A DNA stretch of 64,000 bases from Candidatus Electrothrix communis (lineage in GTDB: Bacteria > Desulfobacterota > Desulfobulbia > Desulfobulbales > Desulfobulbaceae). The notes under the pieces were generated by a model. It was not told where the DNA came from. It ran no database searches and worked only from the letters and a program-made list of their open reading frames with translations. How positions within the stretch are numbered: the stretch's first letter is position 1; every line of letters begins with the position of its first letter. The DNA lies in contig CP130629.1 in the NCBI GenBank assembly GCA_030644725.1, positions 4,479,501 to 4,543,500 of the forward strand, given 5' to 3'. The position numbers and the translations under genes were made by a program. This document shows, one piece after another, positions 56,721-64,000 of the stretch.

Positions 56721-56854
56721 ATGTCTGCTGGTTTGTTGCTACCTACCACAGAACCAAGGTCGGGCTGCTTTTAGCACCCTTCTTCATTCATTGGGAAGAA
56801 CCGTGAGATTCCTCCCTTGACTTCCCGGACCCCCTTGACTAGAGTGTTGTCTGT

Positions 56855-57028
56855 TTTCAGGTGTCCGCTGCATCTAACTATAGAGCGGATGAAAAGGGAA
56901 CCCGGTGTGAATCCGGGACGGGCCCGCCGCTGTAACCGGGGACAAACCTGCATGATGTCACTGTCTTTTTTCAAGGCGGGAAGGCGCAGGGGAGGAAGAG
57001 CCGGAAGTCAGAAAACCTGCCTGAAAAA
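56855..57028 (+). promoter_or_regulatory. Cobalamin riboswitch (aptamer)
   Basis: The core is clear. GGGAACCCGGTGTGAATCC leads to GGGACGGGCCCGCCGCTGTAA, and the B12 box AGTCAGAAAACCTGCC is at 57006-57021. The flanking TTTTCAGGT and ACCTGCCTGAAAA form the closing stem. The aptamer controls the periplasmic chelatase and importer genes downstream through the terminator at 57091-57129. Cobalamin binding should reduce expression, as in known B12 riboswitches. Confidence 0.95.
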
Positions 57029-57090
57029 GATGTTCAGATGCCTCGGCAAAGGTCTGAACAATATGGACGTTATCTGGGTAGAAAAGGGAT

Positions 57091-58196: not shown

Positions 58197-59240
58197 ATGG
58201 CTATAGCTGTACGGTCGGGTGTTTCATACATCACAGGTGGAGGGCTTTTTTTGCTCCTGCTTCTTGGAGTGGTTGTTTCTGCCACTATGGGCTTTATGCA
58301 GATCCCGGCTACAACGGTTTTGCAGCTTATCGGGCATGCTCTTTCTTTGAGCGGCAAGGATGCCGGATTTGATCCGGTGGTGACGGCAGTAGTCATGGAT
58401 GTGCGGCTGCCCCGCATCTTAGCGGCTGTTTTGGTTGGTGGTATGCTGGCCCTCTGCGGTACGGTTTTTCAGGCCATTCTCCTTAATCCGCTGGCAGATC
58501 CCTACACCCTGGGCATCTCCTCAGGGGCGGCCTTTGGTGCATCCTTGGTCATTGTTCTCCAAGTTGTCGGCTTGGCTCTGCCCTCCGCGCTTTCCGTGCC
58601 GATTTTCGCCTTTGCGGGCAGTATCGGTACCCTATTCACGGTCTTGGCCCTTGCCTCTGAAGACCGACGGCTGTCTTCAACCAGCCTGATCCTGTCCGGG
58701 GTCATTGTGGCGGCTATCCTTTCCGCAGCCATCGGTTTCCTGAAATTTATTGCTGATGAGCAGGTCGGAATTATTATATTTTGGCTCATGGGTTCCCTTT
58801 CCGGGATCTCCCGTCAAAATATTCTTCTTCTGCTGCCGGTGGCCCTGATCGGCATGGCGGTTTGCCTGTTTTATAGCCGCGATCTCAATATCATGGCTAC
58901 CGGGGAACGGGCCGCTGCCACCCTCGGGGTCAATACGGTGCGTCTGCGCTGGATTCTTCTAATCACCTGCTCCCTCATGACGGCACTCTGTGTCTCGGTC
59001 TCTGGAATTATCGGTTTTGTCGGTCTGATTGTCCCCCATCTGCTTCGCCATCTTATTGGCCCGGATAATCGGCAGCTGATTATTCTCTCCACACTAGGCG
59101 GGGGGCTGCTCCTGCTCCTGGCCGATACCGTGACCAGGGCTGTGCTCCCTGCTGAAGTCCCCATCGGGGTACTGACCGCCCTTATTGGCGGGCCCTTTTT
59201 TGCCTATATCTTTAAAAAACGACAACAGGAAAATGGCTAG
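58197..59240 (+). CDS. BtuC/FecCD-type ABC permease
   Basis: 347 residues with about ten helices. DVRLPRILAAVLVGGMLALCGTVFQ and NPLADPYTLGISSGAAFGA are the family signatures; GFVGLIVPHLLRHLIGPDNR near the end is the ATPase contact. It imports metal chelates such as cobalamin, haem or siderophores. It follows the chelatase by 27 bases, and its stop TAG overlaps the GTG start of the ATPase by one base. Confidence 0.93.
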   Translation: MAIAVRSGVSYITGGGLFLLLLLGVVVSATMGFMQIPATTVLQLIGHALSLSGKDAGFDPVVTAVVMDVRLPRILAAVLVGGMLALCGTVFQAILLNPLADPYTLGISSGAAFGASLVIVLQVVGLALPSALSVPIFAFAGSIGTLFTVLALASEDRRLSSTSLILSGVIVAAILSAAIGFLKFIADEQVGIIIFWLMGSLSGISRQNILLLLPVALIGMAVCLFYSRDLNIMATGERAAATLGVNTVRLRWILLITCSLMTALCVSVSGIIGFVGLIVPHLLRHLIGPDNRQLIILSTLGGGLLLLLADTVTRAVLPAEVPIGVLTALIGGPFFAYIFKKRQQENG

Positions 59241-60049
59241 TGGATAGAATTGCTTCTGATATCCTCTGGCAGTTGGAGCAGGTCGACTTCTCCTACAAGG
59301 ATCAGCCTGTCTTAGCCGGAATAGATCTTACCCTGTCTTCCGGGAAATGTTACGGTATTCTCGGGCCTAACGGCAGTGGTAAGACCACTCTGCTGGACCT
59401 GCTCTGTGGTCTGTCAGCAGCGGATAAAGGGGAGATCCGCTATCGCGATATCCTGCTCAAACGTTGGCAGGCACGGGAATTGGCAAAACGAGTTGCTTTG
59501 GTGCCCCAGGATTTTCAGGTACGCTTTGGTTTTTCCGTGCGTGAGGTGGTGGAGATGGGCCGCCATCCTCATCTTGGCCGATTCGCCTCCTTGACGGAGC
59601 AGGGACATGTCTTGGTTGATGCTGTGATGGAGGAGATGGGCGTGGCCGGATTTGCGGCTCGCTCGGTAACCCAGCTTTCCGGCGGGGAAAAACAGCGAGT
59701 CGCTGTGGCTCGGGCCTTAGTTCAGGACCCGGAGGTGCTGCTCCTTGATGAGGCCACCTCTAATCTGGATATTTACCACTCCCTGGCCATTCTTGCTTTG
59801 ATTCGTCGTCGGGTTGTAGAGCAGGGCTTGACAGTGGTTGCTGCAATCCATGATCTTAATTTGGCAGCCTATTTTTGTGATGAATTGATTTTTTTGAAAA
59901 AAGGGCGGATTATCTGCCAAGGTCCCACCGATGAGGTGCTGCGTCCCGATGTTATTGAGGAGGTCTACGGCGTGGAGGCGCAGGTTCGGGAGGATGCCTT
60001 TTCCGCCTGCAATCAGGTGAGTTACAGACTCCCTACAACAACAAAATAA
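59240..60049 (+). CDS. BtuD/FecE-type ABC transporter ATPase
   Basis: 269 residues starting at GTG (59240). Walker A GPNGSGKTTLLDLL, signature LSGGEKQRVAVA, Walker B EVLLLDEATSNLD and the H-loop AIHDLNLAAYFCDE. It powers the permease encoded just upstream. C-terminal residues beyond about 250 are unremarkable. Confidence 0.94.
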   Translation: MDRIASDILWQLEQVDFSYKDQPVLAGIDLTLSSGKCYGILGPNGSGKTTLLDLLCGLSAADKGEIRYRDILLKRWQARELAKRVALVPQDFQVRFGFSVREVVEMGRHPHLGRFASLTEQGHVLVDAVMEEMGVAGFAARSVTQLSGGEKQRVAVARALVQDPEVLLLDEATSNLDIYHSLAILALIRRRVVEQGLTVVAAIHDLNLAAYFCDELIFLKKGRIICQGPTDEVLRPDVIEEVYGVEAQVREDAFSACNQVSYRLPTTTK

Positions 60050-60103: not shown

Positions 60104-61003
60104 ATGCTGAAACATATTCTTATTGCTCTCCTGTTTTCTTGCCTATTGGCCGTCCCTGCCTTTGGAGAGCCGATCATTGATAACGACGGCCGGGTGATCC
60201 AGCCGAAGAACTCTTTTCAACGGATCATTTCCCTGTATGCGGCCCATACTCGCAACCTGATTGACATGGGGGCCGGAGCCCAAATTGTAGCGATCGGACG
60301 GAGTGATAAGCAGCGGCCTGATCTGCCCAAGCTTAGCTTTCGTGATGACCCGGAACGCCTGTTGGCCCTGAAGCCGGACCTTGTCCTGATTCGTCCTATG
60401 CTTAGCCGTTCTTATCCGCAAATGGTGGAGCGTCTTGAGGCGAACGGCGTGACCGTGGTTTCTCTTCAACCCACCTCGGTGGATGAAATGTTTCGATACT
60501 GGGAGAATCTCGGCGTGTTGAGCGGTCATCAGGATGAGGCCTCGCAGATGATTGCTCGTTTTGGTGCTGGGCTTGTGGAAATCAACCGAGAGGTGGGACG
60601 TATTCCTGCTGAGAAGAGAAAAAAGGTCTATTTTGAATCTATCCATAAGCGCATGAAGACCTTTGCCCCTGAGTCTATGGCGATGTTTGTTCTGGAATTT
60701 GCTGGCGGTATTAACGTGGCTACGGACGCTGTCCAGGTGCGCAAGAGTAATATTGCTGCGTACGGCAAAGAACGTATCCTGAGCAAGGCAAAGAAGATAG
60801 ATGCCTTCCTGGCCCAGGAGGGACGGATGAATAAGGTGACCACAGAGATGATTAGGAATGAACCTGGCTTTCAGGTCATTAAGGCCGTCCGGGAAAATCA
60901 GGTTTTTCTCGTTGATGAGAAGCTGGTGTCACGTCCTACTCTGGGTATGCTGGATGGGATTCGGACCATTTTTGGGATACTCTACTCAGAGGATACTCCA
61001 TGA
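60104..61003 (+). CDS. BtuF/FecB-type periplasmic binding protein
   Basis: 299 residues with signal peptide MLKHILIALLFSCLLAVPAFG. It has the helical-backbone fold of class III binding proteins (RIISLYAAHTRNLIDMGAGAQIVAIG, DDPERLLALKPDLVLIRP, VSLQPTSVDEMFRYWENLG). It completes the importer of this operon; the ligand could be cobalamin, a cobalt chelate or haem. It is not a lipoprotein by sequence. A long-loop terminator ends the operon. Confidence 0.9.
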   Translation: MLKHILIALLFSCLLAVPAFGEPIIDNDGRVIQPKNSFQRIISLYAAHTRNLIDMGAGAQIVAIGRSDKQRPDLPKLSFRDDPERLLALKPDLVLIRPMLSRSYPQMVERLEANGVTVVSLQPTSVDEMFRYWENLGVLSGHQDEASQMIARFGAGLVEINREVGRIPAEKRKKVYFESIHKRMKTFAPESMAMFVLEFAGGINVATDAVQVRKSNIAAYGKERILSKAKKIDAFLAQEGRMNKVTTEMIRNEPGFQVIKAVRENQVFLVDEKLVSRPTLGMLDGIRTIFGILYSEDTP

Positions 61004-61214: not shown

Positions 61215-61931
61215 CTACCAGAAAAGAAAATCTCTTAATCGTGGAAATATCTGTATCCTTTTCCCGTTTTCCCATATCCCTTTGTAGGTCGTCCCGTCCT
61301 TAAAGGTGTAGGTTCCTTTGCCGTGCCTTTTTCCATTGGACCAACTGCCTGAATACTTATCTCCGTTTGTATAAAACATAACGCCGGTTCCGTGAAATTG
61401 ATCTTCTTTCACGTCACCTGTATATTTTTTTTCATCACGATCAGCCCAGATATAGGTGCCTTTGCCGGTACTCTTATCATCTCTCCAGTCGCCGATATAT
61501 TGTGTACCGTTTTTCCAAACGAATTTACCCGTCCCGTGCCGTTTTCCCTCAACCCAATCTCCTGTGTACTCGTTGCCGTCCGGCCAGGTAAGGGTTCCTT
61601 TGCCATACAGGTCGTTATTTTTTAACTGTCCGACATATTTAAATTTATTTTTCCCGGAGGCAACAAGTGCAACGCATTCTCCCTGACAACGCCCATCATT
61701 CATAATACCTTGTATGCTAGTGACTACTCTATTCCCCACGTGCCATTTGGCAATGCCTTTGCTATTCGCTTTTCCGTTTTTGCATTCTCCGTCCCAGGTC
61801 AATGACTGGTTAGGGGTTGGGTTAGGATCCCAAACCTGACATTGTGTTTTTTGGTCAGTAATCCAGTCGCCTTTTGCCCAGACAGCGCTCGCTGTAAGGC
61901 ATAAAAATGTAACCAATAATTTTTTCTTCAT
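61215..61931 (-). CDS. Secreted MORN-repeat protein
   Basis: 238 residues. A signal peptide (MKKKLLVTFLCLTASAVWAKG) is followed by a Cys-containing region and about six MORN repeats of about 23 residues (GKGTLTWPDGNEYTGDWVEG, HGTGKFVWKNGTQYIGDWRDD, HGKGTYTFKDGTTYKGIWENG). MORN repeats form curved sheets that often bind lipid or proteins. It stands alone on the minus strand, upstream of the group II intron. Function unknown. Confidence 0.85.
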   Translation of the reverse strand: MKKKLLVTFLCLTASAVWAKGDWITDQKTQCQVWDPNPTPNQSLTWDGECKNGKANSKGIAKWHVGNRVVTSIQGIMNDGRCQGECVALVASGKNKFKYVGQLKNNDLYGKGTLTWPDGNEYTGDWVEGKRHGTGKFVWKNGTQYIGDWRDDKSTGKGTYIWADRDEKKYTGDVKEDQFHGTGVMFYTNGDKYSGSWSNGKRHGKGTYTFKDGTTYKGIWENGKRIQIFPRLRDFLFW

Positions 61932-62029: not shown

Positions 62030-62116
62030 TTACGCAAGGAAGATATTCTCAAAAAAAATCATATTTTGATTCCCTCGTATCGGGTCAGAGGGAGCCGAAG
62101 CTCCCGTCTGCCCACA

Positions 62117-62146
62117 GAACCGTGCGTACGGGTCCGTACACGGCTC
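62117..62146 (-). ncRNA. Domain V hairpin of the group II intron
   Basis: Minus-strand GAGCCGTGTACGGACCCG continues to CACGGTTC. The terminal stem GAGCCGTG/CACGGTTC, a two-base bulge and an upper stem closed by a four-base loop are the shape of catalytic domain V, with AGC at positions 2-4. Confidence 0.75.
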
Positions 62147-63033
62147 CTCATGTAACTCGTATCCATTGATGAAGCGGATCCAATCCCGTTGCCTTTCTGT
62201 TGATCTTATCCACTGCCCTGCTACATCTATAAACCATTGGACAGTATAACCCCTCGTTAAAGCAAAGGTGTTGGACAAGACCCAACGACCGTTATTCGAG
62301 AATACCGAAGCGGCTAGCCTCCAGGAAACCCCCTCTTTTGATAAGTTTCCTGAACAGATAGCGGCGCTTCTTCTGCTGGTCAACAAAGCGAGACCGGAGT
62401 CTCCTTCGTATGTGCGCTTCGATGGCTTGAAGTTGGGAAGGGTACTGAGTCATCATATAGTAGCCTGACCACCCTATATACCAGCTATTAATTCGTTTCA
62501 TCGTCACTTCCAGTGGTTGGTGCGTTCCGCGCGGGGTCAACTCCTTGACTTTCAGCATGGCTCTCTTTATAGACTGAGCGGAAATCACTATTGCACCGTC
62601 TATGATTGTCAGCCCCAGAAATTTAACATCCCGAGACCGGCCAACCCTGCTTTTGTCTTTGTTGATTTTCAGCTTGAGTTTGCCTTCAATAAATTTGCTG
62701 ATACTCTTCATTATCCGTTCCGCTGATTTAGGCGTACGAACAAAAATATTACAGTCATCAGAAAATCGACAAAATTCAAGCCCCCTTTGCTCAAGCTCCT
62801 TATCTAATTCGTCCAGAACCACATTACTCAATAATGGACTCAAAGGGCTTCCTTGAGGTGTCCCTTCCTCGCTGGGTGTCACCAGACCGTCTTTCATGAT
62901 ACCACTTCGCAGCGTCATGCCGATCAAGCGTAGTACCTGCTTGTCGTCAATATGCGCGGAGAGGAGATAGATAAGACGGTCGTGATTAACCCGGTCGAAA
63001 AACTTTGATAAATCAATGTCAACAACATACTCT

Positions 63034-63164
63034 GGGCTTGGTTCTAACTTCGGCCATTGTGCAGAAACAACCTGTGCCTCTACGGATATTCTGCTAATTT
63101 TGTGATCTTATTTGCGCATCAAATGTCAGTCGTAAATTAATTGGCCGAACTTAGAACCAAGCCC
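63034..63164. mobile_element. 131-bp MITE-like element with 23-bp terminal inverted repeats
   Basis: The ends begin GGGCTTGGTTCTAA and are inverse copies over 23 bp with one mismatch (63034-63056 and 63142-63164). It is flanked by an exact 8-bp duplication CATACTCT (63026-63033 and 63165-63172). It has no coding capacity. Removing the element and one duplicate restores the reverse transcriptase frame ...GKEY-VVDIDLSKFF. It must be moved by a transposase encoded elsewhere. Confidence 0.92.
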
Positions 63165-64000
63165 CATACTCTTTCCCGCTCTTTACAATCCGCTGTGCTG
63201 CTTCCACGGCTTGTCGTTGGCTGTAACCAGGACGCAAACCATAGCTATGGTCTGAAAAGGTCAGGTCGAGTATGGGCTCAAGAAGCTGTTTAAGCGTTGC
63301 CTGGACGACTCTGTCACGTACACAAGGTACTCCTAGCAAGCGAACTCCAGCTCCTTTACCGGGCTTGGGTATTTCTACCCGGCGTACCGGGTTTGTTTTA
63401 TACGTCCAGCTTCCAATTTCTCCCAGAAGCTGCACCAGTTCCTCTTCAAGACGGCTCTCGAAATCCTGAATGGTCACACCATCTATTCCTGGTGAGCCAC
63501 CGTTCTTCTTTACCGCTTTAAACCCCGCTTCCAGACTGCTCTGGTCACAAAGTTTCTCAAAGAGACTCCTCTCATCAACGAACAGGTTCAGTTGTCTCGT
63601 TTTGCTTTTCATTTTGAGTTGCCTCTTCATCGTCCCGCATCTCCCTTAATATAGCAGAATATATACGTCTTCCCTGAAAAGGAGACTCCTATGGCTGAAC
63701 TCGCGGCGACCACTATTCTGAGACTCTGTTCCATGTCACATGTTCCGCCCTTCGGCTCCAGCATCACTGTCGCTTTCCGATAGTTTTACCCTCAGATACG
63801 TCACCGCATCCTCATCAGCTACCGGTTTTACGCCTACTATGGCTTCATCTGAAGACCCTCTGTCCATAACGGTAACATTTCTGCACCGCTTAGGGCACGG
63901 TTGTCGCAGTTACAACCGGCCCGGCATGCAGACGGCCCCTCACCGGGTAAGATCACGCACTTTCGTTGCCCACTCACCTCCTATACCCCACGGAATACGG

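What the first reader, a model, noticed from the sequence alone, without database searches (positions are those of the whole stretch)
63026..63172. MITE nested in a group II intron, with exact 8-bp target duplication
A 131-bp element with 23-bp inverted ends (GGGCTTGGTTCTAA...) sits in the reverse transcriptase gene and is bracketed by CATACTCT on both sides. Excision restores the protein exactly. A mobile element has thus inactivated another mobile element.
Basis: seen in the sequence. Interest (0 to 1): 0.6.

Follow-up and report, generated by a model that had tools for sequence, protein, structure and literature searches.

The report
Short transposon inside group II intron
In a cable bacterium a 131-base "hitch-hiker" transposon has landed inside the reverse-transcriptase gene of another mobile element; this is ordinary nesting of mobile DNA, but its parent turns out to be a poorly described transposon family whose enzyme is still labelled "unknown function" in databases.

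Summary
A 131-bp element (63034-63164) with 23-bp inverted ends (22/23) lies between exact 8-bp direct repeats (CATACTCT) in a group II intron reverse transcriptase (RT). The same genome (one 4.85-Mb contig, genus of Ca. Electrothrix) holds 11 full-length copies, 9 with exact 8-bp target duplications. Over all loci held, 47 of 92 distinct end-pairs have exact 8-bp duplications, against 0.005 by shuffled pairing. It is therefore a MITE. Its two ends match the two ends of a 1,934-bp transposon in a relative, whose only long gene encodes a 558-aa protein with Pfam domain DUF6399 ("unknown function"). A related DUF6399 family in the host genome and a Thiodictyon plasmid copy also have inverted ends and 8-bp duplications. 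DUF6399 proteins share an apparent DDE triad plus D(2)H, as described for Mutator-like transposases.

Removing the insert restores the frame locally, and intact relatives read through the site. But the RT has a second frameshift near its C-terminus, so excision would not restore the whole protein and the MITE need not be what inactivated it. The host holds only broken copies of the parent transposase. Nesting is ordinary; the by-product is evidence that DUF6399 is a transposase.

The parts
63034..63164 (+). 131-bp MITE
   Evidence: 23-bp inverted ends, 22/23; 11 full-length copies in the genome
63034..63056 (+). left terminal inverted repeat of the MITE
   Evidence: the first 35 bases match the right end of the 1,934-bp DUF6399 transposon at 32 of 35
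63142..63164 (-). right terminal inverted repeat of the MITE
   Evidence: the last 26 bases are identical (26/26) to the left end of the host genome's own truncated transposon copy
63026..63033 (.). target-site duplication CATACTCT, left copy
63165..63172 (.). target-site duplication CATACTCT, right copy
63151..63630 (-). N-terminal part of the intron RT, cut by the MITE (159-aa ORF ending inside the MITE)
   Evidence: TIGR04416 E=1.8e-37, RVT_1 E=1.1e-5
62292..63033 (-). C-terminal part of the intron RT (FSDD motif, maturase domain); ATG/GTG/TTG-initiated ORF 62292-62927
   Evidence: RVT_1 E=7.8e-20 and GIIM E=3.4e-9; TIGR04416 E=2.3e-46
62329..62333 (-). 5-base homopolymer where the RT frame breaks relative to relatives (second, independent lesion)
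62079..64000 (-). group II intron, 3' end about 62079; its 5' end (GTGCG...) lies about 256 bases beyond the window
   Evidence: homology to 4 related introns, in 3 of them from 64253-64256, to 62078-62079 in all 4
62079..62148 (-). group II intron domain V
   Evidence: Rfam RF00029, 47.7 bits against a cut-off of 40

Best explanation
The insert is a MITE: an internally deleted, non-coding derivative of a ~1.9-kb cut-and-paste transposon whose only long gene encodes a DUF6399 protein. A transposase of that family, acting in trans, binds the shared ends, inserts the element with an 8-base staggered cut into A/T-rich DNA, and host repair creates the 8-bp duplication. One copy landed in the RT gene of a single-copy group II intron in a genome of the Ca. 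Electrothrix genus. Shown: ends, duplications, copies, shared ends with a transposon carrying the gene, and uninterrupted intron relatives. Inferred: that the DUF6399 protein is the transposase, that it acts by DDE chemistry, and that it acts in trans. The MITE breaks the RT reading frame, but the RT also has a separate C-terminal frameshift, so the intron may have been decaying already.
For: Element and duplication. Copies: 11 full-length copies in the host genome, six of them 91-100% identical to this one, this one counted; 9 of 11 with exact 8-bp duplications, 1 with 7/8, 1 without. All loci: 47 of 92 distinct end-pairs with an exact 8-bp duplication, best length sharply 8; shuffled flank pairing gives a mean of 0.005, maximum 1. 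Parent: L088/L205, 1-1934, both ends present, one 558-aa ORF, DUF6399 E=1.1e-39. The MITE's two ends equal the parent's two opposite ends beyond the 23-bp repeat. Second family in the same genome: 8 copies of 1,782-1,785 bp, 4 exact and 1 near-exact 8-bp duplications, 3 without. Thiodictyon plasmid DUF6399 element: inverted ends and exact 8-bp duplication. Conserved D...D...D(2)H...E in 6 of 6 proteins. RT identity and uninterrupted relatives.
Against: No intact parent is in the host genome: the best copy (482 aa) is cut before the presumed catalytic E, another is cut at about residue 319 with an internal stop, and a third is a 69-aa fragment. The source of transposase for the recent copies is therefore not seen. 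The only full parent sits at a contig start, so its own duplication cannot be read. Of four DUF6399 loci from plasmids and a viral contig searched for ends, three (L224, L225, L230) gave none. The structure model is too poor to confirm an RNase H fold (pLDDT 39). 45 of 92 end-pairs have no exact duplication; some may be mispaired or rearranged.
Confidence: 0.92

Rival explanations
1. The MITE inactivated an otherwise intact, mobile intron; the C-terminal frameshift is a sequencing error or came later.
For: The MITE cuts the RT before its FSDD active site. The frameshift is a single base in a homopolymer of 5, a typical assembly error. Domain V scores above the Rfam cut-off.
Against: As the sequence stands the RT is frameshifted as well, and FSDD replaces the FADD of three uninterrupted relatives. 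Order of events unknown.
Confidence: 0.35
2. The element is mobilised by a different resident transposase (for example IS1595 family, which also makes 8-bp duplications; recalled) and resembles the DUF6399 transposon only by chance.
For: Two IS1595-type transposase genes exist in the genome. No intact parent copy exists.
Against: No similar ends (14 nt, up to 3 mismatches) around either IS1595 gene. The MITE shares more than the 23-bp repeat with the DUF6399 transposon: 32 of 35 at one end, 26/26 at the other.
Confidence: 0.05
3. The element is a repeat of another kind (REP/BIME-like palindrome, terminator, or part of the intron ribozyme) and not a transposon.
For: It is short and has inverted ends.
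Against: Exact 8-bp duplications at 9 of 11 host-genome copies; the 4 related introns, aligned across the site, lack it; the same element stands at 10 other places.
Confidence: 0.01

Closest known systems
MITEs of bacteria, e.g. those of Ca. Thiomargarita nelsonii (PMC4853749), including a MITE inside a group I intron ('MITEtron')
   Same: Short non-coding element with inverted ends and direct repeats, many copies, gene disruption, one sitting inside an intron (passages read).
   Different: There the parent was not found in ISfinder and the host intron is group I; here a likely parent is found and the host is a group II intron RT gene.
[quoted passage not shown] PMC3942029)
   Same: D, D, E pattern with C/D(2)H 11-19 aa after the second D and a long helical insert before E (passages). 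DUF6399 has D(2)H after 18-19 residues. ISH6 duplicates AT-rich AANATNTT; here the duplications tend to nAAWWTTn.
   Different: No full-length A1 member matches an NCBIfam model of IS256, ISH6, ISLre2 or ISKra4 at E<=1. One split-ORF partial protein hit an IS256 variant model at E=3.5e-4, far below its cut-off. Catalytic domain and fold not confirmed.
DUF6399 domain-containing proteins (Pfam PF19936)
   Same: The parent transposon's protein matches the domain over nearly its whole length; NCBI annotation of plasmid homologues uses this name only.
   Different: Pfam lists no function. The link to inverted ends and 8-bp duplications is made here.

Membership tests
MITE | short, non-coding, terminal inverted repeats | tested here: met
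   131 bp, 23-bp ends; no ORF of 50 aa or more lies wholly inside it
MITE | target-site duplication of fixed length | tested here: met
   8 bp at this copy and exact at 9 of 11 host-genome copies; 47 of 92 over all loci
MITE | multiple copies | tested here: met
   11 full-length in the host genome; matches in 7 of 115 relatives, own genome counted
MITE | shares ends with a coding transposon (parent) | tested here: met
   L088/L205 1-1934; parent in another genus of the same family, only broken copies in the host
Group II intron with RT | domain V, RT and maturase domains | tested here: met
Group II intron with RT | intact full-length RT | tested here: not met
   MITE insertion and C-terminal frameshift
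Group II intron with RT | splicing or retrohoming | not testable with these tools
   needs RNA or a mobility assay
Prokaryotic Mutator-like (p-MULT) transposon, for the parent | D, D, E with C/D(2)H 11-19 aa after the second D | tested here: met
   6 of 6 DUF6399 proteins examined; published range from passages of PMC3942029
Prokaryotic Mutator-like (p-MULT) transposon, for the parent | sequence similarity to known p-MULT families | tested here: not met
   no NCBIfam p-MULT model matched any of 5 A1 members; one partial protein at E=3.5e-4, 19.9 bits against 150
Prokaryotic Mutator-like (p-MULT) transposon, for the parent | RNase H-like fold | tested here: inconclusive
   single-sequence model, mean pLDDT 39; weak rve hits, E 0.02-0.06
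IS1595 family | its transposase carries these ends | tested here: not met
   2 genes in the genome, no such ends in L031 or L032

The most novel reading that the evidence does not exclude
DUF6399 (PF19936) is the C-terminal part, holding the catalytic glutamate, of a DDE/D(2)H transposase. It defines an insertion-sequence family with 8-bp duplications, related in mechanism to the Mutator-like group but outside its named prokaryotic families, present in cable bacteria, other Desulfobacterota, Chromatiaceae and cyanobacteria. It has spawned MITE families that in Ca. Electrothrix have outlived every intact parent copy in the host genome.
Probability: 0.65. Interest if true: 0.45.

Novelty: new member of a known kind. 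Interest (0 to 1): 0.35.

Why it matters
Nested mobile elements are common, so the insertion itself changes little. The chain of evidence from a MITE to its parent gives a testable function to a domain that Pfam and NCBI list as unknown: DUF6399 looks like a transposase with 8-bp target duplications. Genes in cable bacteria and their relatives annotated only as 'DUF6399 domain-containing' could then be read as mobile DNA, and the MITE copies become markers of recent insertions in organisms for which few genetic tools exist.

Tried and rejected
Rejected: chance (shuffled pairing); IS1595 as parent; another intron copy in the host genome (none at DNA level; distant RTs at 32-57% identity only); REP-type palindrome (duplications).

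Led nowhere: viral contigs, with the exact ends (0 stretches), with the parent protein (0 relatives), with two further DUF6399 proteins (0 relatives each), and with the alignment (1 relative, L230, for which no ends were found); plasmids with the MITE DNA (no match); PDB by sequence (0 for the single protein; 7 weak, unconvincing matches for the profile); structure prediction from one sequence (pLDDT 39), so no fold search was run. The second structure job was not used because too few sequences that the tool admits were on hand. In one search the loci L091, L092 and L096 were read on the wrong strand, so those three rows there are meaningless; L091 and L092 were re-read correctly, L096 was not. 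ISfinder could not be consulted, so whether these elements already stand there (for example as unclassified) is unknown.

Literature: a search for DUF6399 found 0 papers; Electrothrix with transposase 0; Electrothrix with MITE 0; Electrothrix with 'transpos' 2, listing only. Papers seen in passages only: PMC4853749, PMC3942029, PMC9769881. All others only as search listings.

Full report
What was checked. The window's end holds a 131-bp element, 63034-63164, with 23-bp inverted ends (22 of 23 complementary) and CATACTCT directly on either side. The octamer occurs only at these two places on the + strand of the window. Removing the element and one octamer fuses two ORFs into a 399-aa reverse transcriptase. 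Its parts match the group II intron RT model TIGR04416, RVT_1 and the GIIM maturase domain, and Rfam finds a group II domain V at 62079-62148. Homology to related introns runs from about 64256 (GTGCG..., beyond the window) to 62079, interrupted at the MITE (three of four relatives align from 64253-64256, the fourth from 63777). The intron is single-copy in the genome at DNA level.

It is a mobile element. The window lies in a genome of one 4,845,585-base contig. That genome holds 11 full-length copies at 72-100% identity, this one counted, and one other copy is identical to it. Nine of 11 have exact 8-bp duplications, one has 7 of 8 and one has none. Matches at E<=1e-4 occur in 7 of 115 relatives, own genome counted: own, five of the same genus, and one of the same family. 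A scan of the genome-contig collection (one genome for each of 84,980 species, by the tool's description) for the exact end pattern gave 88 stretches (all 88 listed), most from one Desulfobacteraceae MAG (S24.Bin080), others from Ca. Electrothrix aarhusensis and marina, a Desulfobulbaceae MAG, Desulfococcaceae HSG9, Desulfocicer and further Desulfobacterota. Over all loci held, 92 distinct nearest end-pairs of 60-420 bp were collected (ends within 3 mismatches of 14; duplicates removed by sequence). 47 of 92 have an exact 8-bp repeat, 52 of 92 with at most one mismatch, and no other length stands out (9 bp: 8 of 92; 7 bp: 1). Shuffled flank pairing gives a mean of 0.005 and a maximum of 1. The 47 duplications are A/T-rich, near nAAWWTTn.

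The parent. L088 (the same contig as L205, JAOTSI010000001.1, Desulfobulbaceae MAG 13_Jan_SF_Bin14) begins exactly at an element of 1,934 bp with both ends and one 558-aa ORF. The protein matches DUF6399 at E=1.1e-39 and no NCBIfam model at E<=1. Beyond the inverted repeat, the MITE's left 35 bases match the parent's right end at 32 of 35, and its right 26 bases equal the left end of the host genome's own truncated copy, 26 of 26. It is thus best read as an internal-deletion derivative. The host genome itself holds only broken parents: a 482-aa ORF cut by insertion of a second transposon before the EGRN motif, a copy truncated at about residue 319 with an internal stop, and a 69-aa fragment. 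Copies of the MITE at 99-100% identity nevertheless suggest recent movement, so an intact source was lost, lies outside the assembly, or was itself mobile between cells (inference).

DUF6399 as a transposase. The second transposon family in the genome also encodes a DUF6399 protein (542 aa intact). Eight copies of 1,782-1,785 bp have their own inverted ends; 4 have exact 8-bp duplications (one of them eight A's, weak), 1 has 7 of 8, 3 have none. A Thiodictyon plasmid DUF6399 gene lies in a 1,916-bp element with inverted ends and an exact 8-bp duplication; 160 shuffled controls gave none. Two cyanobacterial plasmid loci and one viral contig gave no ends. An alignment of five proteins has invariant DETF, D, DxFH and EGRN. 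In six of six proteins the order is D1, 53-55 residues, D2, 18-19 residues, D(2)H, then E 249-272 residues after D2. PMC3942029 (passages) gives C/D(2)H 11-19 aa after D2 and a long helical insert before E as the Mutator-like signature. The fold could not be confirmed (pLDDT 39; the best-modelled part is a helical stretch at about 250-325). NCBIfam p-MULT models do not match any of the five A1 members. So it works like a Mutator-type transposase by motif, and is not filed as a member of a named family. The family is rare among relatives: PF19936 was found in 7 of 389 and in 2 of 395 genomes drawn from the phylum, own genome counted in both.

What the insertion did. Uninterrupted relatives read KE(Y/H)VVDIDLSKFF through the site: 444-aa frames in two same-genus genomes, 455 aa in one of the same family, and one more with its own stop. 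But the joined RT ends early: its last ~50 residues continue in another frame, broken at a 5-base homopolymer at 62329-62333. This could be a real mutation or an assembly error. FSDD replaces FADD of three relatives. The MITE is therefore one of at least two apparent lesions, and cause and order are open. Of the other 10 host-genome copies, none spans a reading frame longer than 184 codons when the empty site is read, so this insertion is the clearest gene disruption of the set.

Verdict. Observation confirmed; interpretation partly supported; ordinary nesting, with a useful by-product on DUF6399. No paper naming DUF6399 was found in the held library, and none on MITEs or transposases in Electrothrix; ISfinder was not available. 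A MITE inside an intron has precedent, in a group I intron of Thiomargarita (PMC4853749, passages).

Noticed in passing
L034 1043-2971 and 2198-2333 (own genome, contig range 890000-895600): Multiple nesting: a 136-bp MITE-like copy of the second DUF6399 family (repeat 7 of 8) sits inside a copy of that family, which itself interrupts the parent transposase of the MITE reported here.
   Followed up: partly
L062 (A6) against L048-L050 (A5), second DUF6399 family, own genome: Near-identical copies fall into two classes by one A in a run (GAAAAAAG against GAAAAAG). The A5 class splits the transposase into two ORFs. Programmed frameshifting, trans-complementation of a dead class, or assembly error are all possible.
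   Followed up: partly
L089 1192-1626 (G003, same genus): A remnant of the parent transposase with its end lies just downstream of an ABC transporter ATPase gene very similar to the one at window 59240-60049, close to where the window has its MITE.
   Followed up: no
L230 2917-4443 (viral contig IMGVR_UViG_3300002092_000058): A DUF6399-type protein on a predicted viral contig; no inverted ends found around it.
   Followed up: partly
window 56842-57038: Cobalamin riboswitch (129 bits), upstream of genes that look like a cobalamin-type ABC transporter ATPase (59240-60049) and substrate-binding protein (60104-61003) by inspection.
   Followed up: no
window 61215-61931 (-): Gene with MORN-like repeats (by inspection of the translation) next to the intron's 3' end.
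   Followed up: no
L082 1142-1529 (G004, Ca. Electrothrix aarhusensis): A 388-bp element with the same ends and an exact TTTAAAAT duplication: a longer relative of the MITE.
   Followed up: no
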